NCBI GenBank assembly: GCA_023897205.1
Contig: JAHWDD010000001.1
Location: 372,001-436,000, forward strand
Reading direction: 5' to 3'
Origin: Exophiala sp. HKRS030
Taxonomy: Eukaryota > Ascomycota > Eurotiomycetes > Chaetothyriales > Herpotrichiellaceae
Length of the DNA: 64,000 nt
A program made the translations under genes and the position numbers. The number at the start of each line of letters is the position of its first letter. The stretch's first letter is position 1. Shown here one piece after another: positions 3,382 to 27,223 of the stretch. A model generated the notes under the pieces. The model made no database searches, was not told the DNA's origin, and saw nothing but the letters and a program-made list of their open reading frames with translations.

Positions 3382-4551
3382 TCAGTACCCGGCCTTTTTG
3401 AGTTCTTGCTCGGTCCAATCCCACAGTTTCTTGCCTGCCTCGGCGTCCGTTGCCCATTTGTTGTTCTGTAACTTCCCGACGGGGGTGTAATACTGTCCAT
3501 TCTTCAGCTCTTCCTTCTTCGCACCGGCCGAAAGCCACAAGGTGTTGAATGCTCCCGCCTCGATGGACTGGAAGATAAGTGGGCCGATCAACTTGGATCC
3601 GTACCTGACGAGCGGGTTCGTCTGGGAGTTGGCGGCATACAGGTCTGTGTGGATCATACCAGGGTGCAGCGACACGGCGGTGAAAGCTGGATACCGACGT
3701 GCGAACTCGGCCGCGAACATGATGTTTGCTGCCTTCGAGGCCCCGTAGCGTGCCCATGGGCCTTGAGCTGAGAGCTTCTCCGTCGATAGGATGGTGTCGA
3801 GCTTGGGACCAAGGTTCCACGCCTCGGACGAGAGCGAAATAACTCGGACGTCTTGGTTGTATTGATTTGCCGTCTTTTGAAGCAACGGGAGAAGAAGCTT
3901 GGTCAGCAGAAAGTGGCCGACGTGGTTGGTGCCCAGCTGGATCTCCTGTCCCGAGGCAGTCTTTCCGGCGGGGACGGCCATGATGCCGGCATTGAGAATC
4001 AAGATGTCAAGTCTGTCGGTGCGACTGGCCACTTGGTCGGCTGCTTTGTGGATGGACGGCAAGGAAGCCAGGTCGAGTGGTAGGAACTCGATGTCGACAC
4101 CTTGCGGGATGCTGGATTTGATGGAAGCAATGGCTTCGTTGGCTTTGGCTTCTGTGCGGGATGCTAGGAAAATCTTGTGCGGGTTGTGCTTTGCGAGCTG
4201 GAGGACAGTTTCTTTGCCCAGGCCAGCATTGCCTCCAGTAACGAGGATAACCTTGTCGCTGAGACTGGGGATGTCCTTTTCGGGGTTGAATGATTTGCTG
4301 GTGTTGAATGGCCACATGTTGACAAGACCAGGGAAGAATATTTCAATGGCGGTCAAAGGATGAGTTGCGTATGGCAAGGCTAGCCCTGTAGCTAGATAGA
4401 AGAAATCTTGAAGGTTCGAGAGGCTTGGAAGTATCGCTTTGTCTGTGATGCTGGGTTTCTGGGTTTCGTTGTTGGATTGTCCATCCTTTTGTACCTCGTC
4501 GACCTCCGTGTCCTTCGGGACTCCTTGGGTTGATGATGGTGGTGGCGCCAT
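3382..4551 (-). CDS. Short-chain dehydrogenase/reductase (WWOX/retinol dehydrogenase-like)
   Basis: Single exon, 389 aa, starting MAPPPSSTQG (the upstream in-frame TTG at 4554 is ignored). A classical SDR Rossmann fold begins near residue 105: VILVTGGNAGLGKE is the TGxxxGxG NAD(P) motif, ILNAGIMA is the NAG motif, and YGASKAAN is the catalytic YxxxK. The preceding ~100 residues are unusual for a minimal SDR: a polar start, then a hydrophobic stretch (FFYLATGLALPYA, IEIFFPGLVNMW) that could anchor it to a membrane. It resembles fungal WW-domain-oxidoreductase-like SDRs, which carry no WW domain and whose substrates are mostly unknown. It is transcribed in the same direction as the metalloreductase upstream, 439 bp away. 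Confidence 0.9.
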   Translation of the reverse strand: MAPPPSSTQGVPKDTEVDEVQKDGQSNNETQKPSITDKAILPSLSNLQDFFYLATGLALPYATHPLTAIEIFFPGLVNMWPFNTSKSFNPEKDIPSLSDKVILVTGGNAGLGKETVLQLAKHNPHKIFLASRTEAKANEAIASIKSSIPQGVDIEFLPLDLASLPSIHKAADQVASRTDRLDILILNAGIMAVPAGKTASGQEIQLGTNHVGHFLLTKLLLPLLQKTANQYNQDVRVISLSSEAWNLGPKLDTILSTEKLSAQGPWARYGASKAANIMFAAEFARRYPAFTAVSLHPGMIHTDLYAANSQTNPLVRYGSKLIGPLIFQSIEAGAFNTLWLSAGAKKEELKNGQYYTPVGKLQNNKWATDAEAGKKLWDWTEQELKKAGY

Positions 4552-4990
4552 CAACGCAAGAATGTCTTCCCGTCTCCTCTCGATAGCCTACGTGCATAGA
4601 GTCCAAGAGACATGTGTTACCTACCTTAGTAATCTAGTAAGGACCACTTGTTTACGGACATAGCCTAAACAAAGAAATGGAGAGTCGGGGAGTGGTGGAC
4701 GTAATAGAAGGCCCTGGTCGGTGCGGAGAAAATCCAGGGCCGGTGTGACCAATGAGGCGATTTTGCATTACGGCCGCAACCCGGACAAGATCAACTGGTC
4801 ATCCATCCACCAACTACTTCTTTCGTTGGCTTATGATGCGAGACTAAACAACAACTGCAGGACAGAATACAGAGTGGTGTCTGCTGTCCCCCAGCTCTCA
4901 TTCGTGGGTATCATCAAATCATATTTGTCCTTCGTCAGAACTCCTGTTGCTATGCTAAAATGACAAACAATACCTTGGCACTGTCACAGT
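4552..4990. other. Intergenic, 439 bp; promoter side of the SDR gene
   Basis: Between the SDR start and the metalloreductase 3' end. No additional gene and no clear motif seen. Confidence 0.55.
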
Positions 4991-7057
4991 CTAGTAACAG
5001 AAACCCTCCACGTGAAGATATATCCCCTGAGCGCCGGTTCCTTTATGCACCGCTCTTTCATCCGACAACGCAACCACACTTCGTCGCACATCATCCTGTA
5101 GACCCTGTGGTCCACAGACCACCACTGCGCTTTCTCCTTCCGCCTCCTCCAGGACTTTTCTGATGATACTTCTAGGTTTTGGCCGACCAGCCACCATTTT
5201 AAGGCGTTGTGTAGGTACAATTGCCTCTGAAGCATCCTTCTCATTGATGGAGGAGGAGGAAGAGGATTCTGCACTTGATGATGCTGCACAGCAACAACAT
5301 GTTTTTGGTTGCCCATCCTCGTCGACGGTGCTTCTGCAGCAACAGGTTCCGTCAGATCCGCAACCATCCTGGACGTCTTCGTTGGAGGCAACCGAGCGGA
5401 CATCAACCTTTTCATCTGTGACTTTTTCCTTTGCCGTTGCGGCCTGTTTGGTCTGAAGAGTGGCAATCTCTGCGGTGCCATGTGCCGATGGCTCACATAT
5501 TGCCTCACTATTGGATGCTTCCAATTTATCGTCACAAGTCACGTAGATGCTGAGGTCAAGCTCCTTGTCCGAATGGCCGTCATGTCGCCGGACTTCGTCA
5601 ACGTCCATCAGTGCGGTTTCCAACTGTTTCTGAAACCAGGACACTCGATCGCGAGCTTTCACCACCCAAATAAATCGAATACGCTTCGTAACAATGCCAG
5701 AACCAAGGACACCAGTCTTCCACCGCTGTACGATGTCGCGCATTAACGGTACTGTGAAAGTGGCACCAGTACTGCCGGCAAAGAGACAAATGCTATCAAA
5801 CTGACGCAAGGGTCTGATTCGACCATATGGACCTTCGACTCCAACAAGCTTTTGTCGGGTGACAGGGAGATCTTCGTGACTTGGAAGGCCCATGCCCTTT
5901 TGGGCGAATCGATGGAAGCGTTTTGTACCACCTCCTTTTGCTTGTACTAGAAATTCCAGCTTCTCATCAGACTGGATCGAGGCAATGCTGAATGGATGAC
6001 TCTGCAAAGGGACCACCGTATGGCAGGAGAGGAAAACGTGTTGTCCCGCTGTCCACCTCAGAACCGGCTTGTCGATAGTAATTCGCGTTATGTTTCCTGG
6101 CAGGGGCGTCAAAGTTGCTCTGTTTGCCCACAGCCAGTCCCTTCCTGGCAGCTGTCGATGGAAGAAGGAAAAATTGGCGAAAAGCGTGATAACAAATCGG
6201 AGGACTCGATCGAAGAAGAAAATCGCAACACAAGCCCAGACATAACCCGGGCCATAGTCGACATGGATTATCACGCACCCGATAAATCCAGAAAAAAGGA
6301 TGAGATGAACGACGAGGAAGACCTCGTAACTCAAGCGCCGCATTGGTGCAAAGGAGGTCGCCACGATGGCAGTCAAGATGCACCAGGCAGCAAAGCCAGT
6401 TTGTGTCATATTGTCTGTGGCCAGCTTCACTTTGATGTAATCGTAGCGTGCCCAGCTTCTGAACCAGAATCCAAGATGGAAAGTAGCCGTCAACCAGAGA
6501 ACCCGGGCCACCCATCGATGCAACCAGCTGAGGCGTTCGTAGCCGACGCCGGACAGGAAGCCAATAATGTTTTGCTTTCCCGCGAGAAGGAATATCAGAG
6601 GAAGCTGTGTTTGAGCCATGCATCCACACCTGTAGGCGATGTTCTCCCAACTCCATTGATCCGTGGTGTCGTATCTATAGAAGCAGAACACACAGACGGT
6701 GATGAGATATGACAGGACCACAATGACCTTGCCTAGAGGAGGCGAGCGGATTTTAAGCCATCCAAGTTGATAAGTTGGAAGTGAAGAAGCATTGATCTCG
6801 CGACTAATGGCTGTCATTGTGGCGTAAAAGGCCCAGAGGAAAGACTTTGGTTTCGCATCAAGGCTTCGCTGTCGTTGCCAGAGGAGGATATGGTCAAGAA
6901 TATTCAGAAGGGTCGCGAAAGCAATGACAGAGCCGATGACCACCCAGAACATTTTCTGCATGTAGAAGTAGCCTGGGACATTGTTCCCAGCGCTCATACT
7001 TCCCATATCCATATCCCCCATATCCCCGCCATGATCATGTCTTGTGAGAAGAGACAT
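4991..7057 (-). CDS. Ferric/cupric reductase (FRE-type metalloreductase) with Met-rich N-terminus and Cys patch
   Basis: Single exon, 688 aa, ATG at 7057. The family moves electrons from NADPH through FAD and two hemes across the plasma membrane to reduce Fe(III) or Cu(II). Multiple membrane helices span about residues 35-300. The bis-heme histidines are visible as H180/H194 and H251/H265, both with Hx13H spacing. FAD motif HPFSIAS is at 354-360; NADPH motifs are GPYG at 409, GSTG at 428 and CGPQG at 648. Two oddities: residues 7-22 are Met/His-rich (HDHGGDMGDMDMGSMS), like a Ctr N-terminus, and residues 566-590, inside an insertion in the NADPH domain, hold eight cysteines (C, CCC, CCCC). 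A Ser/Glu-rich low-complexity run follows. It shares a 981-bp divergent promoter with a Ctr copper transporter, so a cupric-reductase role is favoured (inference). Confidence 0.95.
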   Translation of the reverse strand: MSLLTRHDHGGDMGDMDMGSMSAGNNVPGYFYMQKMFWVVIGSVIAFATLLNILDHILLWQRQRSLDAKPKSFLWAFYATMTAISREINASSLPTYQLGWLKIRSPPLGKVIVVLSYLITVCVFCFYRYDTTDQWSWENIAYRCGCMAQTQLPLIFLLAGKQNIIGFLSGVGYERLSWLHRWVARVLWLTATFHLGFWFRSWARYDYIKVKLATDNMTQTGFAAWCILTAIVATSFAPMRRLSYEVFLVVHLILFSGFIGCVIIHVDYGPGYVWACVAIFFFDRVLRFVITLFANFSFFHRQLPGRDWLWANRATLTPLPGNITRITIDKPVLRWTAGQHVFLSCHTVVPLQSHPFSIASIQSDEKLEFLVQAKGGGTKRFHRFAQKGMGLPSHEDLPVTRQKLVGVEGPYGRIRPLRQFDSICLFAGSTGATFTVPLMRDIVQRWKTGVLGSGIVTKRIRFIWVVKARDRVSWFQKQLETALMDVDEVRRHDGHSDKELDLSIYVTCDDKLEASNSEAICEPSAHGTAEIATLQTKQAATAKEKVTDEKVDVRSVASNEDVQDGCGSDGTCCCRSTVDEDGQPKTCCCCAASSSAESSSSSSINEKDASEAIVPTQRLKMVAGRPKPRSIIRKVLEEAEGESAVVVCGPQGLQDDVRRSVVALSDERAVHKGTGAQGIYLHVEGFCY

Positions 7058-8038
7058 GATTGTCGAGTAGTGGAATGGTCAGAACACCACAATGCTCTCC
7101 TCCAGGTGTTGTCATACAAAAGGACCGCCGTTCAAAGAAGCAATCACCACAAGGGGGTTTCGTCCCTTAATGCCATAGACGCCGTCAAGTACTTGATATT
7201 TGTCGTAGCCCCTAGACGAAGACTGGTAGGATAGGCCGGTCTTTGGATCTAATGGCTCGTGAAATAAAACAGGACTCTGAGCAAGATATGACGGTGTAAT
7301 CTTCTTTTCCTGATCGTAGGTGAGAATAGAAACCTCAAAGCTCAGAGAATCCTGCCAGGGAAAACGTGCTCTGTGCAAACGGCGGCCGAAATCGAGGTCC
7401 TGTATGGAAAAAGGATCAATCGGGACCAAGGAAATCCACCGGGTCAGCAACTGAAGGGGCAAATGGAGGGCGCGAAAATGAACAAAAAAACATGCTCAAG
7501 TCCAGACGCGCCTCTCACCACCCATCGCATGAGTGTCTTTACGGAGACAAAGAACAGGGGAAAAGTGGTCGAGTGGTGGACTGTGCATAAAGCGGATTCT
7601 TCATGCGCCTCAACCGCAGCTAAAACCTGTGAAGCCGACAAACTTGCTCGCCAAGAACTTGCTCAACTCTGGTCGCCCTCAAGACTTCACAAAGCCAAAG
7701 CAAGTCAGATCAGTGAAGTCTGTGTCGAAGTGGACACTCGATTGCCGACCCAGACACATGCCTCTTGTCGATAACAATAATGTGGACACGCCGAATCCTA
7801 CTTGGTACTGTTGACCGGTGAATGAGTACGCGGTCGATCTTCTGTAACATGCTCAACCTTTGACTCTGTCGACCATCATTAACACAACAGCCTGCAACCT
7901 CTTGAACAGCAGGATCCTAACAATTGCACCACGTATACTACTCGTACGGATTCAAAATCACTACCTTTACAACACAGCCAAACTTCTCATCACCTCCTCC
8001 TCAACCCAAAAACCCCCGAAGAAACATATTCCATCACC
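7058..8038. promoter_or_regulatory. Divergent promoter between metalloreductase and Ctr, with repeated TGCTCA words
   Basis: This 981-bp region must hold the promoters of both genes. The hexamer TGCTCA occurs at 7493-7498, 7660-7665 and 7850-7855 on the plus strand and at 7278-7283 on the minus strand. CGTGCTCT is at 7365-7372. The S. cerevisiae Mac1 core is TTTGCTC and the reported A. fumigatus Mac1 site is TGTGCTCA, so these are candidate copper-fist sites (inference). An open frame at 7112-7462 (minus) lacks an ATG start and is not called. The last 100 bp before the Ctr start are CA/CT-rich, as usual for a fungal leader. Confidence 0.5.
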
Positions 8039-8631
8039 ATGTCGCACTCAATGTCCGGCATGGGCCACATGGACATGACCTTCTTCACTGGCCACACCAC
8101 TCCTCTTTACTCAAACTCATGGACACCATCTTCTGTAGGAGGCTATGCAGGCACCTGTATTTTCCTGATCCTTCTCGCCATCATGTTACGACTTCTCTTC
8201 GCGGCAAAGGCACTCTGTGAACAGCGATGGTTGGCTAGTGCGCAGAACCGACGTTATGTGCTTGTCCGTGGGAGGTCAACGGAAGCCGGCAGGATCGATC
8301 AGGATCCTGACGCCAAAACCGGCTCGCTGGTGACAGCGAACGGGGTGGAGGAAAACATCAAAGTTATACAAGCATCGACTGGAGCAGTGGTGCCTTTTCG
8401 ATTATCTGTCGATGTCCCTCGTGCTTGTCTTACAACCCTCATTGCCGGTATCTCATATCTACTGTAAGTCAAAGCAACTGTTTTACGAGGTGTCGACCCT
8501 ATCTGACTTCTTACAGCATGCTGGGTGTTATGACCATGAACGTGGGCTACTTTCTCTCGGTGCTGGCGGGCGTTTTTGTTGGCGAACTGGCTGTGGGCAG
8601 ATATGCTCAGATTGATGAACATTTACATTGA
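8039..8631 (+). CDS. Ctr-family copper transporter
   Basis: Two exons, 8039-8463 and 8517-8631, with a 53-nt GTAAGT...ACAG intron, give 179 aa. Ctr proteins form trimeric plasma- or vacuolar-membrane channels for Cu(I). The N-terminus is a short extracellular Met/His segment (MSHSMSGMGHMDM), followed by TM1 (about 36-56), a cytosolic loop with basic residues, and two closely packed C-terminal helices. The hallmark MxxxM of TM2 is M143-M147 (MLGVM), split from TM1 by the intron, and the GxxxG of TM3 is G160-G164 (GVFVG). The tail ends in EHLH, so histidine rather than the cysteine motif of some Ctr proteins may receive copper (inference). Length and topology fit the family. It is transcribed divergently from the metalloreductase and co-directionally with the BIM1-like gene. 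Confidence 0.95.
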
Positions 8632-9402
8632 GCGACGCTTAATGATACTCGTATATTTTGTAGCCAAAAGCTCAAGAGCCCTGATAGAGGTTGCTTGACA
8701 GAAGATTCGTTTTGCAGGCCTCGTCTTACTAGTCGTTGTGGTTGCCCTTGTTGGGGTCTCCGGAGACCCGTCATTCTCACTATCCTCATTTAGAATCGGT
8801 ATAGCTCTTGGGAAATCAAATTGATGATTGTATGACACACGCACGAATATTCATCTCGGCAGATTCATTCTACACTCTGCTCATTCCACTTGTGCCGCTA
8901 CACGGGTGTCTATCACCAGCCTTCGAAGGGAATGTGATGTGGAGCTCTCGTCGACCCCTGGCGAAATTCGAACCCCTGTTCCCGCGCTGTCAAGCTAATA
9001 ACCAAAATAATGTGAGCACGTTTTCGCTCTCCACCACAAAATGTGCTCTTTCCAACCAACGACTTCAATACTGTACGTGCCTTCCGCTTTGCATCAAGGC
9101 TTGAAATGAAGAAGAACAGGTAAGCTTCGACAAGCAAGCGAAGCTCCGGCGCCATACTAACAGGTAAGCCACCACTTTGGCGGTCTGAAGGGCACTATAC
9201 GGATACCTACCTAGGTACCGGATTTGTCTAGACTTAATGCTCCGTTGCTGCACGCCCTGACATACTTCTTCGTTCCTTCGTTCTGTGCTTTTGCCCTCCA
9301 TTAAACTACCCAGTTCTTCCCTCTCTTTCTGTACCTCAACCTTCTTCAAATCTTGCCCTAAACACTCAGGTCTACTGATTCTTCATCGACACATACGACA
9401 CA
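8632..9402. promoter_or_regulatory. Upstream region of the BIM1-like gene with TGCTCA/TGTGCTC words
   Basis: This 771-bp interval carries TGCTCA at 8878-8883, TGAGCA (the reverse complement) at 9013-9018 within TGTGAGCACG, and TGTGCTCT at 9042-9049. They match the words in the neighbouring metalloreductase/Ctr promoter and lie 350-520 bp before the BIM1-like start. TACCTAGGTA, a perfect 10-bp palindrome, is at 9208-9217. The last 100 bp form a CT-rich leader. Copper regulation is inferred from these words and from the gene context. Confidence 0.45.
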
Positions 9403-10162
9403 ATGGTTCCTCAAACACTTCTTGCGGCCCTCTCGCTGCCTCTGCTGGCCACTGCTCACTTCCACATGCTGTACCCAACCCCGCGCAGCAATGTCGAGGA
9501 TACAGAGCCTACCTTCCCATGCGGTGGTCATCCAGTCTCTGAGAACCGGACGCTGGTCTCGGAGTCGGTTATCCCAGTAGCTCTGCAGATGGGCCACGAT
9601 CGAACTGTCATTCAGATGCTACTTGCATTGGGCAACAACCCTGGCGACAACTTCAACATCACTCTCGAACAGACCTTCCAGCAACAGGGCGAGGGTGATT
9701 TCTGTTTGCCTACGGTCAAGATCCCTGCCGACTCGAACATCACCGACGGCACCAATGGTACTCTGCAGGTGATCACTGATAACGAGGGCGGTGGCGGTCT
9801 CTACATCGTATGTTGTCTCCTTAGATATGTTTGGATTGCCGTTGACTAAAGAACTTGTCTAGTGCGCCGACCTCACGTTCACATCGGCTCCCACGGTCCA
9901 ATCCCTTCCAAGCGCTTGTACCAACGGCACGGGCGTCACGGCCTCCCCACTCTCTTCTATCGTCAATGCCAATGTGACAAATGGAGACGGTTCGCCTCAG
10001 GGCGGCTCGGGTTCTGGATCGTCTTCAGCCTCGGGCAGCGCAACTCCAAGTGCTACGGCGAGCGCTTCATCCAGCGCCAAGACTGGCAATAGCGCTGCCG
10101 TATTGACCGCTGGTTGGGGCGTCTTGGGTGCTGCGGCCTTGGGAGCGGTCGCTCTGATGTAA
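9403..10162 (+). CDS. BIM1/X325-like GPI-anchored extracellular copper-binding protein (LPMO-like fold)
   Basis: Two exons, 9403-9807 and 9863-10162, with a 55-nt intron, give 234 aa. Residues 1-18 form a signal peptide ending LLATA, so the mature chain would start at H19 (HFHMLYP). An N-terminal histidine that ligands copper is the defining trait of X325 proteins. A second conserved-looking histidine is H65 (MGHDR). Paired cysteines (C40, the FC in GDFC, the CADLTF segment after the intron, and SACTNGTG) fit a disulfide-bonded secreted domain, with several NxS/T sites. A Ser/Ala/Gly-rich linker and a hydrophobic C-terminus (VLGAAALGAVALM) indicate GPI anchoring. In Cryptococcus, Bim1 cooperates with Ctr1 in copper uptake (established knowledge). 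Here it sits directly downstream of a Ctr gene, which supports the same role. Confidence 0.88.
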
Positions 10163-10398: not shown

Positions 10399-11271
10399 TT
10401 AAGGCCATGTCTCAACCAAATTCCACTCGCCTATAGTTTCACTTGGTTGTCTACCACCTGGCCCACCGACTTCCTCTGACAATGTCCAGATCTGTCTTTT
10501 GGCGTTGGCTGGGTCGGTCAGGTCCACTGCCTCAACCTGTTCCGGTGTGATTATGCAAACTCGGAAATTCTGCCTCGCCAGTGGTTCATCGGAAAGATGT
10601 CCTGCCTTTTGGCCCAGCCCTTCTCCTGCTTTTTCATCCTTGCCTAAATCTATTGCTTGGCCGGGTTCGGGGTTCTTAAAGGAGCCTCTCATCATAGGCG
10701 AGAGATTCTCAAAGTGGTTCTCGGTCTCACGCTTCCATGACCAATCCTTATTCTTCTCCGCGTGACCGTTTTTTGTTCGCATATATCGACCGAGCTCGGC
10801 CTTGACAGTGACGGTCCCCGAGTTCTGTGCTTCCTCGCCGCCTTCAATATCATCGGGCCCAATGATCCAACATTTCCCCCGTATACGCCATTGGGTCATT
10901 GTGTCCTTGACCCAATAGACTGCCTCCACCGGCCCACCTCCTCCAGAACCTGATCGGGACTGTGCTAGATCTCCTTTGCCCTTGCCGGTGGCAAATATGT
11001 CGAATGTCTTTCCCATGCGGGCGTCCGTGGTGAAAGTTGGACAATCAGATTCATAGATGGCAGGATTTTTGGGAAGTTTGTTATGCTCATTCTCGGGCAA
11101 AGTCGCCCAGAAGCCACGAAAGATACAGGTTCGCACACGGGGCAGACCATCTTTCGTGACCGTTGCAAGCATGAACTCCGCTCCCGATCCACGATTGCCA
11201 GCACTCTCCTCAAGGTGTTCCTGGAATAGTTGCTTCCATGGCGCCGTGGTGGTCGCGGTAGGATGAGACAT
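10399..11271 (-). CDS. Pyridoxamine 5'-phosphate oxidase-like FMN-binding protein (Alr4036 type)
   Basis: Single exon, 290 aa, ATG at 11271 (the frame extends ten codons to a GTG, which is not used). The N-terminal half reads like an Alr4036-type PNPOx split-barrel: APWKQLFQEHLE, then FMLATVTKDGLPRVRTCIFRGF, then SDCPTFTTDARMGK, and a downstream VYWVKDTMTQWRIRGKCW strand. These are the positions where family members contact FMN. The middle part is extended by low-complexity Gly/Ser and charged residues. The C-terminus ends in a typical WNLVETWP. Family members are linked to vitamin B6 or flavin-dependent chemistry, but the reaction of this subgroup is unproven. It converges with the BIM1-like gene (236 bp) and is divergent from the Dbf2 kinase. 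Confidence 0.85.
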   Translation of the reverse strand: MSHPTATTTAPWKQLFQEHLEESAGNRGSGAEFMLATVTKDGLPRVRTCIFRGFWATLPENEHNKLPKNPAIYESDCPTFTTDARMGKTFDIFATGKGKGDLAQSRSGSGGGGPVEAVYWVKDTMTQWRIRGKCWIIGPDDIEGGEEAQNSGTVTVKAELGRYMRTKNGHAEKNKDWSWKRETENHFENLSPMMRGSFKNPEPGQAIDLGKDEKAGEGLGQKAGHLSDEPLARQNFRVCIITPEQVEAVDLTDPANAKRQIWTLSEEVGGPGGRQPSETIGEWNLVETWP

Positions 11272-11936: not shown

Positions 11937-14014
11937 ATGGCTGTTGCCAATACACCACTCTCTCCAACATCACAAAAAGACCTCAACATGGTCATGCCTA
12001 TGCCTCCTCCTCTCTTGCACACTCGTTCGGGCAACGAGCTGTACGATCGCCCTCAAACCCCGACCACACCGGGTGGAAATCATGGATTCACCAGTCCGGT
12101 CCAGACACCTCAGGGCAGTCCGAGCAAGAAACAACTTCCTCCTGGTGCCAATGACTTGCCAAATGTCTTTGAGAATGCCATGAAACTGGCTCCTGCGTCG
12201 CCTACCAAGACTCAGCCCTTGTCGCCCACCAAACAAGGCCTTTCACTCGGCACCGACAATGTCAACAGAGACCCCTTCGCTGACCACAACAATCACAACT
12301 ATGGCCGTTCTGAGAGTCCCACACGTCAGTCAAACAAGGAAAATGCACCAGCCATGAGGTATGGAAAGGACATCCAGCAAAACCACGCTGCACTGTCTCG
12401 ACAGGAGCAATACCAGCCAACTGAGTCGAGAAAAACAATTACACGTGGCTTGACCACCGAAGAGATGCAGAAGCTACAACTACCCAAGGTGAAGCGTCTT
12501 GCAAATGTGACTCAATTGTGTAAGTGACCATGTCTGATTGAACTCTTCCGCTTCTAACTTGACTAGACTTTCTCGACTACTACTTCGACCTCCTTTCTTA
12601 CGTGCACAACCGTCAGTCTCGAGAAACTGCCTTCAAGGCCTCTTTCCCAGAACCACCTGAGACCCCGAAAGAAGAATACGATGCTGCTTTGCACAAATAT
12701 CTCGGCCGTGAACGTGCCAATTTGCGAAAGCGTCGGACTCGTCTCCGCCATGGCGATTTCCAGATCTTGACACAGGTTGGCCAGGGCGGCTATGGTCAGG
12801 TCTATCTGGCCCAAAAGAAGGACACACGCGAAGTCTGCGCCCTCAAGGTTATGAGGAAGAAATTACTGTTCAAATTGGATGAAGTCAGACATATCTTGAC
12901 CGAGCGAGACATCCTGACCGCTGCTAAATCCGACTGGCTTGTCAAGCTGCTCTACTCGTTCCAAGACGATGAACAGATCTATCTTGCCATGGAATACGTC
13001 CCAGGCGGAGACTTCAGGACACTATTGAACAACACTGGCGTTCTACACAATCGACATGCTCGTTTCTACATCGCAGAGATGTTTGCTTGCGTTGACGCCC
13101 TTCACACCTTGGGCTACATTCACAGAGACTTGAAGCCGGAAAATTTCTTGATCGATGCTACTGGCCACGTCAAGCTCACCGATTTTGGTCTTGCTGCTGG
13201 TATGCTGAGTCCCATCAAGATTGAAAGCATGAGAATCAAGCTCGAGGAGGTCGGAAATACCCCAGTGCCTTTTGGCATCACACCAGTTGAAGATCGATCA
13301 GCCGACCAACGACGTGAGGGATACCGTTCTTTGCGAAAGAAGGACATCAACTATGCCAAGTCGATTGTCGGCTCTCCAGACTACATGGCCCCTGAGGTTC
13401 TCAAAGGGGAACAGTACGACTTTACCGTTGATTACTGGTCCCTGGGATGCATGTTGTTTGAAGCACTTGCAGGATACCCTCCTTTTGCTGGTGCGACAGT
13501 TGATGAGACCTGGCAGAACTTGAAGAGATGGCAACGTGTTCTGCGAAAGCCAATCTACGACGATCCAAACTATTTCCTCAGCAAGCGCACCTGGGATTTG
13601 ATCACTCGTCTCGTGGCGGCCAAGGACAATCGTTTCAAGAACATTTCAGAAATCCACAAGCATGAGTACTTTGCCGAAGTTGATTTCAATGCACTCAGAG
13701 AGCAAAAGGCACCGTTTGTGCCCGAGCTTGACTCTGAGACCGATGCTGGATACTTTGACGATTTCAGCAATGAGGCCGACATGGCCAAGTACAAGGAAGT
13801 GCATGACAAGCAGCGAGCTCTTGAAGACATGGCCGAGAGAGACGAGAAAATGGGCAAGAGTTTGTTCGTCGGATTTACTTTCAGGTATTTATCTTTCACC
13901 TTTTAGCAAGTGAGCCAATACTGACATTGACTACACAGACACCGTAAGCCAGATACAGAGGCAAGCCCACGAAAGCGAATTGAGACGGACGGCACATTCG
14001 GAACAATGTTTTAG
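11937..14014 (+). CDS. dbf2: NDR/LATS-family protein kinase Dbf2/Sid2 (SidB), septation initiation network
   Basis: Three exons, 11937-12519, 12567-13884 and 13939-14014, give 658 aa. Sid2/Dbf2 kinases act at the septum and spindle pole body, with a Mob1 partner, to trigger cytokinesis. The first ~190 residues are disordered and rich in SP/TP sites, consistent with CDK control. A Mob-binding helical stretch (YFLDYYFDLL onward) precedes the kinase domain near residue 259. Visible motifs: VGQGGYGQVY (glycine loop), CALKVMRKK, YIHRDLKPENF, LTDFGLAAG, a long insert before the activation segment, and AKSIVGSPDYMAPEVL, which is Dbf2/Sid2-like rather than Cbk1-like. The hydrophobic motif FVGFTFRHRK spans the last intron, which confirms that splice. 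C-terminal TMF ends the protein. Assignment to Dbf2 over Cbk1 is confident. Confidence 0.95.
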
Positions 14015-14543: not shown

Positions 14544-15665
14544 CTACTGCTTGAAGTTCCTCGCATACCCAGGCCACTGCCTCTCAAAGGCCTCGACGGT
14601 GTCCAGGATGGACTTGTCGTAGCGGATGAAGCTGTCGGCACCGCCCAGGGCCTTGTGCGCCTTGGTCGAGACCAGACTGCTCTCGCCCTCGACGAAGCCA
14701 TAGTCGGGCGGGGTGTAGCCTTGGCCAGGGTTGCCGACGACGATGTCTCGTCCGGGGAATTTCTCGCGCAACAAATCCGCGGCGGCCTGGGGGGGTGCTT
14801 TGCCCATGGACAGCAGGTACCGTTGTCCGTCGCTCCGGTCGGGGTGTTCCATGGCCCAGACGTGCATGCGGGCCACGTCTCGGACGTCGACGTAGCCGGC
14901 CCCGCCGATCTGGGGAGGGAGTTGCTTGTCGCCGCTCCAGATCCGCCACACCGGGAGGAGGGTCTCGTTCAGCCCCTGGGGGGACTGGGGCCAGGACACC
15001 GGCGGGCCGGTGACGACCGCCGGCAGGACGGACGAGACGGCGAATCGGGGTTGGTGTTCCGCCACCCAATCCCAGACCGCCCTTTCCGCCGCGGCCTTGG
15101 ACGCCCCGTAGGCCACGAGGGCGGAAAAGTCCTTGCGGGCGACGGCCTCGCCGCTCGTGTTCCAGTCGGCCTCGGTGTAGGCGTGGTCGGGGGCCTGTCT
15201 CCACCTGTCCACCACGGCGGCGACCGAGGAGGTGACCACGAAAGACCTCAGGGTGGTCGTCGTCGTCGTCGACGACGACGACGACGAGGCGTGGGCGAGG
15301 GCCGAGTTCAGGATCGACAGGTTGCCGCCCACGGCGGGCCTGAAAAAGTCGTCGACGTTTGTCAGGGAAAAGTCGACGGGCGAGGCGGTGTGGATGACGG
15401 CGTGGACTCCACGCACGGCCGAGTCGAACGCACCCGGGGCGGTGATGTCGGGGACCACGGCGTGTTCGTATCGCGAGTCGTGACCCTTGAACGCACCCGA
15501 CAACAGATGTGTCTGGGTCGCGGAAGACCTCGACGTTCCCCTGACCTTGTACCCCTTTCGGAGGAGTTGGACGCCGATGTGCGTGGCAATGTACCCGTTT
15601 ATACCGGTGATGAGAACAATCTTGTCCTCGTTGGCCGCCGTCACGGCGGACGACGGTGGTGACAT
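14544..15665 (-). CDS. NAD(P)-dependent epimerase/reductase (aldehyde reductase, dihydroflavonol-4-reductase/Gre2-like)
   Basis: Single exon, 373 aa, ATG at 15665 (an in-frame TTG lies upstream). This is an extended SDR: IVLITGINGYIATHIG is the N-terminal TGxxGxxG Rossmann motif, VRGTSRS follows, AVIHTASPV is the central strand, and YGASKAAAE is the catalytic YxxxK. It resembles fungal Gre2/YGL157-type carbonyl reductases (methylglyoxal or aldehyde reduction with NADPH); the substrate is inferred. A Ser6-Thr6 tract (around residue 130) is encoded by a perfect 30-bp trinucleotide palindrome and interrupts the usual strand spacing. Third codon positions are very GC-rich, which creates long antisense open frames. 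It is divergent from the TatD gene. Confidence 0.88.
   Translation of the reverse strand: MSPPSSAVTAANEDKIVLITGINGYIATHIGVQLLRKGYKVRGTSRSSATQTHLLSGAFKGHDSRYEHAVVPDITAPGAFDSAVRGVHAVIHTASPVDFSLTNVDDFFRPAVGGNLSILNSALAHASSSSSSTTTTTTLRSFVVTSSVAAVVDRWRQAPDHAYTEADWNTSGEAVARKDFSALVAYGASKAAAERAVWDWVAEHQPRFAVSSVLPAVVTGPPVSWPQSPQGLNETLLPVWRIWSGDKQLPPQIGGAGYVDVRDVARMHVWAMEHPDRSDGQRYLLSMGKAPPQAAADLLREKFPGRDIVVGNPGQGYTPPDYGFVEGESSLVSTKAHKALGGADSFIRYDKSILDTVEAFERQWPGYARNFKQ
15256..15285. repeat. (GTC)5(GAC)5 perfect palindrome within the reductase gene
   Basis: Five GTC units followed directly by five GAC units form a 30-bp perfect inverted repeat with no loop. On the coding strand it specifies Ser and Thr runs. 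Confidence 0.95.
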
Positions 15666-16891
15666 GGTGGGCGACGATGGCGACGACAACGGCGAAGAGG
15701 GTGATTTTTCTTCAGCGGCAGCAGTAGCGAGAATGGGTGACTGTGGTGATCGACTTCTACTCCGACTGAGGGATCGTAGGTAGAGGTGAGAAAGTCTCTT
15801 TGAGGTCTCTATTTTGGCGACTTTGGGGGGGGGTCAGGGCCTTTCGCTGGGGGCTTTGTTTTTATATACAGTCAGGGTAGGTTCAGGTATCTGGGTACCG
15901 GTACAAGTACGAGGTGTAATGTACGATGCTCGTTGATGTTTGACCAAGGAGTTTGGGCAGATCTCGTTTATCTCATCCGGAGACTCGGTTGTTTCTTTGG
16001 GACCGCAACGCCGGTTTTAGCTGCTCCGTAGAGGTAAGGATAGATGGAGGCCCACAAGAGTGGGGGGCAAGGAAGTTCTCCCGACTTTGAAATGTTGTAT
16101 TTTTTAAAGATTTATTGATTCAATTCATCCGTAATCCTGTTGTCAAGTGAAAAGCGTGCTGCCGTGATTGTTTCAACCCAGCCGACTGATTCCGTATGAC
16201 TAAAGGTTGAAGTCTCCCGACAACGAGAGATTACTAAACTGGAGGGCCCGACGTCAATCTCAATGTTTAGCAATTACGATGGCGGAATTGTCTAGACAGT
16301 CCAGTCTATACAGGAGACATGTAATCCGCCTTGAGGCTCTTTTTGACACGTGTGACGTAGATACACCCATTACTTGTAGCACATGAGTTTTTATAGCACA
16401 ATACGGAGTAGAAAGACTGCCAGCGTTGATTTTGGTAGATATTTAGTAAAGTGGCCGTCATTCTACGTCAGGCGAGACCAGAAATGGCCAATCTCACCGT
16501 AACTTCTCCGTCCGCACGTTTCGGTCTGACGGAGTGTTTTATTTCCATCGTCATTTTTTGTCCAGTTCACATTCCCAACGACGTGGTCTCTTGATTGTGC
16601 TGCATTCCGGAGCGATATCTTGCCGCTCAATTTCGATGCTGCCACGAGTTCAGAATTGTTTCAACAGTAGTATTGCCAAGGCCCATAAGACTTCACCGTT
16701 CCGTACGAAGCGCAGCGCCCCTGGGTTACTTTTGTTTGGTAAGGGAGTTGATTCGAAGGTGGCCTTCGAGCAATATTCAAATTGACGGTAGTTTGACACT
16801 TGACACAGATCGCGAATTCTATGCATGGGCAGGTAGACGCTCGTTGACTGTCCGACAACGATCCTCGTGGTCAAGGTCAATTGGGAGCACT
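15666..16891. other. Divergent intergenic, about 1.2 kb
   Basis: Upstream regions of the reductase and TatD genes. One TACGGAGTA copy lies at 16402-16410. A T-rich stretch is near 16097-16115. Small open frames at 16463-16978 lack family features and overlap the TatD leader, so none is called. Confidence 0.55.
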
Positions 16892-25825: not shown

Positions 25826-27223
25826 TTATTCGAGCAACTTTTGAATCCTAGAAATCTGTTCCTCGACGCTCTTTTTGCTCGTCCCACCCAGGACCGTCCT
25901 CTTCTCGACGCTGGCCTCGTAGTTGAAGGCGCCCATGACGTCGTCGCCGAACCTGGGGTCGACGCCCTGCAGCTGTTTCAGACTCAGTCGGTCCATGGGC
26001 TTGCCCTCCTTCTCGGCCAGGGCGACGACGCGGCCGCTGATGTGGTGGGTCTCGCGGAAGGGGACGCCCTTGCGGACCAGGTAGTCGGCCAGGTCGGTGG
26101 CGAGCATGTCCGGAGTGAGGGCGGCCTTCATCTTGTCAGGGAAGATGGAGAGGGTCGACAGGACCCCGGTGGCGATCTGGATCGAATCGGCCGTGGTCTT
26201 GACGCCGTCGAGCATGGGCTCGAACGACTCCTGGAGGTCCTTGTTGTAGGTCGAAGGGAGGCCCTTGACGCTCATCATCAGGCCCGCCATGTAGCCGAAC
26301 ACGCGGCCGCTCTTGCCCCGGAGCAGCTCCAGCGAGTCCGGGTTCTTCTTCTGGGGCATCAGGCTGCTGCCCGTCGAGTAGGCGTCGGCGAGCCGGACGA
26401 ACCCAAACTCGGCCGTCGAGTAGATGATCAGGTCCTCGGCCCAGCGCGAGATGTGCTGCATGAGAGTCGCGGCCCACTGGAGCGTCTCGACGACGAAGTC
26501 CCGGTCGGCCACGGCGGCCATCGAGTTGTTGATGATGCCCTCGAACCCCAGCTCCCTCGCCATGGCCTCGCGGTCGATGCCGAACGGGTTGCCCACCAGC
26601 GCGCCCGACCCCAACGGGGACCTGTTGACGCGCTTGATCACCTCCCTCAACCGCTCGAGGTCCGACGTGAAGACGCTCCCGTAACTCAGGAGCCAGTGCG
26701 ACCAGCGGATGGGCTGCGCCCGTTGGAGGTGAGTGTACCCCGGCATCAAGGCGGAGATTTCGGACTGGGCGCGAGACGTCGTCACGCGGAGCAGAGAGAC
26801 GAGGTGTCGTTCCATCTCCCTCAGCTGGTCGCGCAGCCACAGCCTCATGCCCGTGCCGACCTGGTCGTTGCGGCTTCGTCCCGTGTGCAGCTTGCCCGCG
26901 ATCTGCGTGCCGATGATCTCGCCCAGCCGCCGCTCGTTGGCCGTGTGGATGTCCTCGTCGACGCCGGGCTTGATCTCGAACTTGCCACTCTCCCACTCCG
27001 AGAGGACCTCCCCGAACCCCTTTTCGATCGCGAGGAATTCGTCCTGGGTCAAGATGCCGATCTTGGCGTTGGCGCGGGCGTATGCTATGCTCCCTCGGAT
27101 GTCCTGGGCGTAGATGGCCCGGTCAAAGTAGATGGACTCGTTGTACGACACCATCAGAGGGTCGAGGCCGCCGGTGAAGCGACCCCCCCATAGCATGTTG
27201 GCGTTGGGTTTGGATTCCGACAT
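25826..27223 (-). CDS. ARG4: Argininosuccinate lyase
   Basis: Single exon, 465 aa, ATG at 27223. It cleaves argininosuccinate to arginine and fumarate, the last step of arginine synthesis. The fold is the aspartase/fumarase superfamily tetramer. Visible markers: [10 protein letters not shown] at the start, [10 protein letters not shown] (conserved region 1), [10 protein letters not shown] (region 2, catalytic His), and the signature [13 protein letters not shown], whose serine is the catalytic base. The length is normal and the frame complete. Codon third positions are so GC-rich that the opposite strand is open over nearly the whole gene; that antisense frame is rejected. The next gene in the same direction is fumarase, which can consume the fumarate made here. 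Confidence 0.98.

What the first reader, a model, noticed from the sequence alone, without database searches (positions are those of the whole stretch)
4991..10162. Putative reductive copper-acquisition island: metalloreductase, Ctr transporter and BIM1-like protein side by side
Three genes that act in sequence on extracellular copper are contiguous: a bis-heme reductase (Hx13H twice), a Ctr channel with MxxxM and GxxxG, and a secreted, GPI-anchored X325/BIM1-like protein whose mature end is a histidine. Bim1 is known to work with Ctr1 in Cryptococcus. Physical linkage of all three in an ascomycete suggests a co-inherited, co-regulated module. I do not know whether this linkage has been described.
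Basis: partly seen in the sequence, partly recalled or inferred. Interest (0 to 1): 0.8.

Follow-up and report, generated by a model that had tools for sequence, protein, structure and literature searches.

The report
Conserved fungal copper-uptake gene trio
In a black yeast (Exophiala oligosperma or very close), a surface metal reductase, a copper channel and a cell-wall copper-binding protein are neighbouring genes; the same trio has been reported side by side in Aspergillus fumigatus, so this is a conserved copper-scavenging set rather than a new system.

Summary
In detail: FRE (4991-7057, -), CTR (8039-8631, +) and a BIM1/X325-like protein (9403-10162, +) are contiguous, with the families and motifs claimed. 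The copper-uptake reading is well supported, but the linkage is not new. Sugui et al. 2008 reported three adjacent, co-induced A. fumigatus genes, a GPI-anchored protein, a copper transporter and a metalloreductase, and deleted them together. Reductase-CTR pairing is reported in 110 of 127 species. I found no held paper that names the trio with BIM1; the two founding BIM1/X325 papers are not held. Locus tags show the trio, or two members at trio spacing, in seven named genomes of Capronia, Exophiala, Rasamsonia and Penicillium. Four Mac1-type TGCTCA cores lie in the FRE-CTR promoter; BIM's own upstream region is weak. Four of seven CTR loci in this assembly have a divergent reductase; one of six BIM loci is beside a CTR. 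Less expected: the reductase has a cytosolic Cys cluster (CCC in 119 of 120 listed proteins; in none of 22 other reductase-family genes read) and a Met-rich N-tail. New member of a known kind.

The parts
4991..7057 (-). FRE: bis-heme FAD/NADPH metalloreductase, 688 aa, no intron; Met-rich N-tail and Cys-rich insert
   Evidence: Pfam PF01794/PF08022/PF08030; two Hx13H pairs; 100% to E. oligosperma Frp1; AF2 model with seven long membrane helices by my reading of the helix list
5210..5524 (-). Codons for the disordered insert of the NADPH domain (residues 512-616), holding the CCC...CCCC cluster
   Evidence: pLDDT under 50 at 511-616; CCC invariant in 33 of 33 aligned rows, present in 119 of 120 listed proteins
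6989..7057 (-). Codons for the Met/His-rich N-tail of FRE (residues 1-23), predicted disordered, inferred extracellular
7058..8038 (.). Shared FRE-CTR divergent intergenic region, 981 bp, with four Mac1-type TGCTCA cores at 7278(-), 7493(+), 7660(+), 7850(+)
   Evidence: 4 found, mean 0.63 in first-order Markov sequences, P(>=4) 0.0037; all four fit DHNTGCTCA (by eye)
8039..8631 (+). CTR: Ctr-family copper transporter, 179 aa, exons 8039-8463 and 8517-8631
   Evidence: PF04145 E 6e-39; MxxxM and GxxxG; 100% to PV06_00133
8632..9402 (.). CTR-BIM intergenic, 771 bp, TGCTCA cores at 8878(+) and 9013(-); only 9013 fits DHNTGCTCA (by eye)
9403..10162 (+). BIM: BIM1/X325-like histidine-brace copper protein, 234 aa, exons 9403-9807 and 9863-10162; presumed mature N-terminus His19
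   Evidence: PF20238 E 7e-34; LaX325 6ibh by sequence E 5e-8, 6ibi by fold E 1.6e-9

Best explanation
A conserved copper-starvation uptake island. The GPI-anchored BIM1/X325 protein in the cell wall captures Cu(II) with its histidine brace (His19, His65, Asp138); the adjacent reductase passes electrons from NADPH through FAD and two hemes across the membrane and reduces Cu(II) to Cu(I); CTR carries Cu(I) in. FRE and CTR are transcribed divergently from one promoter with Mac1-type sites and BIM follows CTR with its own upstream region, so all three would be switched on by a Mac1/MacA-type copper-fist activator when copper is low. Shown here: gene identities, order, motifs, BIM fold match, recurrence of the order in other genera, sites in the FRE-CTR promoter. 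Inferred: secretion and GPI anchoring, enzymatic activity, substrate, copper hand-over, Mac1 control in this species, inheritance as a unit from a common Eurotiomycete ancestor.
For: Families and motifs. Consecutive locus tags BIM/CTR/FRE: A1O1_08352/53/54, A1O3_03354/55/56, VTN77DRAFT_5960/61/62; CTR/BIM PV06_00133/134 and N7475_003906/907; FRE/BIM two apart PV08_04577/79 and N7461_008592/594. 14 of 45 BIM proteins on contigs of 5 kb or more share a contig length with a listed CTR or FRE (the script printed 15, I drop P0016 on a 1-kb contig). A. fumigatus Afu6g02800-02820 adjacent, co-induced, deleted together; MacA binds TGTGCTCA motifs in the ctrA2 promoter (review); ctrA2 is down 4.85-fold by copper. 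F. oxysporum Mac1 binds DHNTGCTCANNN sites in the shared promoters of ctr3/fre9 and fre12/ctr1b, and ctr3 plus fre9 overexpression rescues a mac1 mutant under copper limitation. TGCTCA: 16 in the 1 kb upstream of the four paired CTRs against 3.4 expected, 2 upstream of the three unpaired. In P. destructans two of three BIM-like genes and three reductases rise when copper is withheld. C. neoformans Bim1/Cbi1 works with Ctr1.
Against: No expression data for this species. BIM's upstream region has 2 TGCTCA cores, one off consensus; by hand calculation about 0.65 expected, P about 0.14. 2.1% of 981-bp windows in the 64 kb hold four or more cores. In C. neoformans the purified protein is said to lack the redox activity of sugar-modifying enzymes and its specific role in Ctr1 uptake is called unclear. 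The A. fumigatus triple deletion gave menadione sensitivity and no defect on iron-limited medium; no copper-limited test appeared in the passages I saw. One study reports Afu6g02820 more strongly up in wild type than in an aceA deletant under copper, not a simple copper-starvation pattern. In P. destructans both CTR tags lie away from the BIM-FRE pair. E. sideris and R. mackenziei show adjacent CTR and FRE tags but no BIM in the BIM list, which may be absence or a limit of the search.
Confidence: 0.82

Rival explanations
1. Only the divergent reductase-CTR pair is the functional unit; the BIM gene is a neighbour kept by synteny and works mainly in cell-wall chitin/chitosan upkeep.
For: Pairing is far commoner for FRE-CTR: 4 of 7 CTR loci have a divergent reductase, 1 of 6 BIM loci is next to a CTR; 110 of 127 species have the pair. 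BIM's own promoter sites are weak. Cbi1 affects cell-wall chitin/chitosan in C. neoformans.
Against: Joint induction of all three in A. fumigatus; trio tags kept from Capronia to Rasamsonia; two of three P. destructans BIM-like genes induced on copper withholding; Bim1 acts with Ctr1.
Confidence: 0.2
2. The island serves iron or oxidative-stress metabolism and copper is only a cofactor supply for it.
For: A. fumigatus triple deletants are menadione-sensitive and the genes rise with normal more than with CGD neutrophils; Afu6g02820 rises with overexpressed hasA, which the authors place in an iron-centred regulon.
Against: The same deletants grow normally on iron-limited medium and are not more peroxide-sensitive; two of the three proteins belong to copper families; menadione sensitivity would also follow from starving copper-zinc superoxide dismutase (inference).
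Confidence: 0.08
3. The conserved Cys cluster of the reductase is a lipid-attachment (palmitoylation) or structural site rather than a Cu(I) sensor.
For: Runs of cysteines in disordered cytosolic loops are often palmitoylated (recalled).
Against: C-x(3-7)-CCC-x(8-30)-C-x(0-1)-C spacing in 104 of 120 listed proteins, in a polar, glycine-rich context, looks more like a metal site; not tested.
Confidence: 0.3

Closest known systems
Aspergillus fumigatus Afu6g02800-02810-02820 (GPI protein, ctrA2, metalloreductase), Sugui et al. 2008, PMC2481287
   Same: Same three kinds of gene, adjacent on chromosome 6; co-induced and deleted as a block. P. destructans BLP3 was annotated after AFUA_6G02800, which ties that gene to the BIM1-like family.
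   Different: Eurotiales versus Chaetothyriales; gene orientation there not checked by me; the GPI protein is not called BIM1 or X325 in the passages I saw.
AnctrA-AnfreC pair of A. nidulans (AN3208 is AnfreC), PMC7705104
   Same: Metalloreductase and CTR share a promoter region to which Mac1 binds; 110 of 127 screened species have a reductase beside the CTR.
   Different: BIM1 has 0 occurrences in that paper's text.
F. oxysporum ctr3/fre9 and fre12/ctr1b divergent pairs, PMC11563359
   Same: Divergent pairs with Mac1-binding sites with a TGCTCA core between the genes.
   Different: The third gene beside ctr3 (FOXG_07771) is listed as a SAM-domain protein, not BIM.
C. neoformans Bim1/Cbi1 with Ctr1, PMC9258870 (the original 2020 paper is not held)
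   Same: Same protein family and presumed role with a CTR.
   Different: A functional partnership; in the passages I saw there is no statement on genomic linkage.
P. destructans VC83_03095 (BLP2) and VC83_03096 (metalloreductase), PMC12113139
   Same: BIM-like and reductase genes with consecutive tags, both up when copper is withheld.
   Different: The two CTRs carry distant tags (VC83_00191, VC83_04814).

Membership tests
X325/BIM1-like copper proteins (PF20238) | Pfam BIM1-like domain above the curated cut-off | tested here: met
   117.8 bits against cut-off 27
X325/BIM1-like copper proteins (PF20238) | Mature N-terminal His plus internal His and an Asp near copper | tested here: met
   His19, His65, Asp138 align with the LaX325 chain; H65 invariant, H19 and D138 at 90% or more of 31 rows, the window's own among them. 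That X325 has an Asp ligand is from PMC10952591; which Asp is my inference. Signal-peptide cleavage judged by eye.
X325/BIM1-like copper proteins (PF20238) | LPMO-like beta-sandwich fold | tested here: met
   AF2 model mean pLDDT 74.6; the four best Foldseek hits are LaX325 chains (6ibi, 6ibh), best E 1.6e-9, TMt 0.78; true LPMOs follow only at E about 2e-3
X325/BIM1-like copper proteins (PF20238) | GPI anchor | tested here: inconclusive
   Ser-rich stalk and C-terminal helix 223-233; no GPI predictor run
X325/BIM1-like copper proteins (PF20238) | Binds copper and supports CTR-dependent uptake | not testable with these tools
   Needs experiment
Ctr copper transporters (PF04145) | Ctr domain, membrane helices, MxxxM and GxxxG | tested here: met
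   134.4 bits against 25.3; three hydrophobic segments, M143-x3-M147, G160-x3-G164
FRE metalloreductases | Ferric_reduct, FAD and NAD domains and two Hx13H heme pairs | tested here: met
FRE metalloreductases | Reduces Cu(II) | not testable with these tools
   Needs assay
AnctrA-AnfreC type divergent copper-uptake pair | Head-to-head reductase and CTR with Mac1-type sites between them | tested here: met
   981-bp intergenic with four TGCTCA cores
AnctrA-AnfreC type divergent copper-uptake pair | Mac1 occupancy and induction at low copper | not testable with these tools
   Four copper-fist matches exist in this assembly; which is the Mac1 orthologue was not worked out
Afu6g02800-02820 trio | BIM-like, CTR and reductase as immediate neighbours in relatives | tested here: met
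   Locus-tag numbers in seven named genomes: three with all three tags consecutive, four with two of three at fitting spacing. Apart from the window's assembly no fungal genome was read.

The most novel reading that the evidence does not exclude
The island reductase is a copper-dedicated, self-regulating subfamily: its CTR-like Met-rich extracellular tail binds the Cu(I) it makes and passes it to the CTR encoded beside it, while the disordered Cys cluster (C...GxCCC...CxC) inside its NADPH domain senses cytosolic Cu(I) and stops electron flow when copper is sufficient. BIM1, reductase and CTR would then be a physical relay at the cell surface.
Probability: 0.25. Interest if true: 0.7.

Novelty: new member of a known kind. 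Interest (0 to 1): 0.4.

Why it matters
How BIM1 hands copper to CTR, and what reduces it, is open (PMC9258870 calls its role in Ctr1 uptake unclear; a review writes 'Fre?' for the A. fumigatus reductase). A conserved neighbourhood names a candidate reductase for each such CTR and BIM, and the published A. fumigatus triple deletion becomes readable as loss of a complete copper-uptake set. The conserved Cys cluster and Met tail of the reductase give direct, testable handles on feedback and copper hand-over.

Tried and rejected
Biosynthetic-gene-cluster or metallophore cluster: rejected; the flanking genes I scanned are ordinary (DUF1295 protein 1504-2455, SDR 3385-4587, pyridoxamine oxidase-like 10402-11271, kinase 12563-13906, epimerase-like 14544-15833).

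Linkage by chance: rejected (and locus tags).

BIM linkage as a general rule inside this genome: rejected, 1 of 6 BIM loci is beside a CTR.

Linked BIMs as one clade against all others: not supported as such. In a tree of 30 of the 62 listed BIM proteins plus 4 of 5 other BIM loci of this assembly, the Chaetothyriales group that holds the linked copies (98/99) is sister to the other Chaetothyriales copies (99/99; the join 83/87), and the Eurotiales BIMs form another branch (93/98). This fits duplication after the split with one copy staying in the island, but the join is below the starred level, and Colletotrichum and Blastomyces have long branches.

The genome collections offered are prokaryotic apart from the window's own assembly; I used locus-tag numbers and equal contig lengths. 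The CTR list is 120 of 1416 hits, the FRE list 120 of 891, the BIM list 62 (only 7994 candidates scored), so absences are not scored.

Own-genome reductase control: 23 stretches read; 22 genes matched the FRE profile (several are NADPH oxidases by look), L046 gave no match and is dropped; seven further loci were not fetched. Unspliced frames were read, some without the NADPH part, so a cluster or tail on another exon could be missed. None has CCC, two have CC; no frame has more than 4 Met in 25 residues, the window FRE has 6.

A stretch of a copper-fist locus (L049:1-400) gave no family (frame not checked), so the Mac1 orthologue was not identified.

Papers: the two founding BIM1/X325 papers of 2020 are not held, so I cannot exclude that one of them mentions the neighbours. 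Searches for the linkage in print. For the Met tail and Cys cluster: only. Papers were seen as search listings and found passages; of PMC12113139 also the outline with its abstract.
Full report
What is there. The window is Exophiala oligosperma (Chaetothyriales) or a near-identical strain: the BIM protein is 100% identical to PV06_00134, the CTR to PV06_00133 and the reductase to the entry named Frp1 of E. oligosperma. Three intact genes fill 4991-10162. FRE (4991-7057, minus, 688 aa, no intron) has the three domains of ferric/cupric reductases and two Hx13H pairs. CTR (8039-8631, plus, one intron, 179 aa) has the Ctr domain, MLGVM and GVFVG. BIM (9403-10162, plus, one intron, 234 aa) has the BIM1-like domain, matches the solved X325 protein of Laetisaria by sequence (E 5e-8) and by predicted fold (E 1.6e-9), and keeps His19, His65 and Asp138. 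The flanking genes scanned look unrelated to copper.

Is the linkage more than chance? In the window's own assembly (59.8 Mb, 50 contigs) there are seven CTR loci (10 matches), six BIM loci (7 matches) and 30 loci of the reductase and NADPH-oxidase family (32 matches; my grouping). Four of the seven CTR loci have a divergent reductase within a few kb (window, C14, C2, C23). With uniform placement this has a probability of about 2e-9 (27 loci assumed) or 3e-9 (30 loci). One of six BIM loci lies beside a CTR, the window's. The assembly may hold more than one genome (I recall about 38 Mb for E. oligosperma), so the other loci may not all be from the same organism; GC of the stretches is similar, 0.48 to 0.54.

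Conservation. Three named genomes have consecutive tags for all three genes (Capronia coronata, C. epimyces, Rasamsonia byssochlamydoides). E. oligosperma and Penicillium sp. IBT 31633x have consecutive CTR and BIM tags; E. spinifera and Penicillium sp. DV-2018c have FRE and BIM tags two apart. These seven are the genomes in which I saw tags for BIM and a partner on a shared contig length. Capronia is in Chaetothyriales and Rasamsonia in Eurotiales. The second BIM of C. coronata, A1O1_05990, is unlinked. By equal contig length, 14 of 45 BIM proteins on contigs of at least 5 kb share a contig with a listed CTR or FRE, 3 of them with both; 23 CTR-FRE contig matches were found, against 81 listed CTRs on contigs of 20 kb or more. 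Equal length is a proxy and the lists are capped. E. sideris and R. mackenziei show adjacent CTR and FRE tags without a listed BIM.

Already in print. Sugui et al. 2008 state that Afu6g02800 (putative GPI-anchored protein), Afu6g02810 (copper transporter) and Afu6g02820 (metalloreductase) are adjacent, list log2 differences of 11, 8 and 3 in hyphae with normal versus CGD neutrophils, and deleted all three; the deletants were menadione-sensitive, not more peroxide-sensitive and not impaired on iron-limited medium. Afu6g02810 is ctrA2. AFUA_6G02800 is the name under which P. destructans VC83_07867, the BIM-like BLP3, was annotated. The A. nidulans paper reports the CTR-reductase pair with a shared Mac1-bound promoter region, and a reductase beside the CTR in 110 of 127 species. 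So neither the pair nor the trio is new; the BIM1 identity of the third member in this place, and its spread over Chaetothyriales and Eurotiales, I found in no held paper, but the two founding papers are not held.

Regulation. F. oxysporum Mac1 binds DHNTGCTCANNN and A. fumigatus MacA binds TGTGCTCA. The FRE-CTR region has four TGCTCA cores against 0.63 expected (P 0.0037), all fitting DHN by eye; however 2.1% of same-size windows in the 64 kb reach four. In the 1 kb upstream of the four paired CTRs there are 16 cores (3.4 expected, Poisson 6e-7), upstream of the three unpaired CTRs 2 (2.55 expected); upstream of six BIMs 14 (5.1 expected, P 0.0008), 11 for the five without the window's (P 0.004). 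The grouping was made after seeing the data, some start codons are approximate, and the 1 kb upstream of the window BIM runs into the CTR gene. The BIM intergenic itself has two cores, one fitting. Four copper-fist matches exist in the assembly.

The reductase. Of the 120 listed proteins (one is the window's own), all have CC and 119 have CCC after residue 430 (the exception is P0233); 117 have CCC followed by CxC or CC, 104 the full C...CCC...C(x)C pattern. The cluster sits in an insert of 94-161 residues (85 of 120 measurable) with 6.0% Cys against 1.8% elsewhere. CCC is invariant in 33 of 33 aligned rows. Of 22 other reductase-family genes of this assembly, including the CTR-paired ones on C14, C2 and C23, none has CCC and two have CC (unspliced frames). 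The N-tail averages 22% Met against 1.3% in the rest; 91 of 103 tails have MxM or MxxM, 17 proteins without a measurable tail being left out. Met tails of the other reductases could be judged only in unspliced frames: none has more than 4 Met in 25 residues, the window FRE has 6. The model (mean pLDDT 69.4) has both segments disordered and, by my reading, seven long membrane helices, which puts the tail outside if the FAD/NADPH domain is inside; the simple hydropathy scan found six segments. The listed proteins are the best-scoring relatives, so the conservation counts describe this subfamily.

Mechanism and confidence. Capture by BIM, reduction by FRE, import by CTR, induced by a Mac1-type factor: 0.82 for the island as a copper-uptake set. 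The hand-over steps are inferred. The sharper idea of a self-regulated, Cu(I)-binding reductase is open at 0.25.

Noticed in passing
window 5210-5524 and 6989-7057 (-): The FRE has a conserved Cys cluster (CCC...CCCC) in a disordered insert of the NADPH domain and a Met-rich N-tail. CCC is in 119 of 120 listed proteins and in none of 22 other reductase-family genes read in this assembly as unspliced frames.
   Followed up: partly
L021 and own contig C23 (78.6 kb), about 9-31 kb: A CTR at 26979 is flanked by reductase genes on both sides, in a run of four reductase loci and one CTR within about 22 kb.
   Followed up: partly
own assembly G000: The assembly is 59.8 Mb in 50 contigs, larger than I recall for E. 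oligosperma; a mixed, hybrid or duplicated assembly is possible and would affect paralogue counts.
   Followed up: no
L024 (C3:2616000-2625900) and L026 (C3:1512000-1521900): Two BIM paralogues about 45% identical to the window BIM each have four TGCTCA cores in the 1 kb upstream, though not next to a CTR.
   Followed up: partly
P0048 (Blastomyces gilchristii) and P0051 (Phlyctema): BIM-like proteins are annotated as 'expression library immunization antigen 1', so a fungal antigen name covers this copper-protein family.
   Followed up: no
P. destructans VC83_03095 and VC83_03096: BIM-like BLP2 and a metalloreductase have consecutive tags and are both induced by copper withholding; the word 'adjacent' does not occur in either of the two papers searched for it.
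   Followed up: partly
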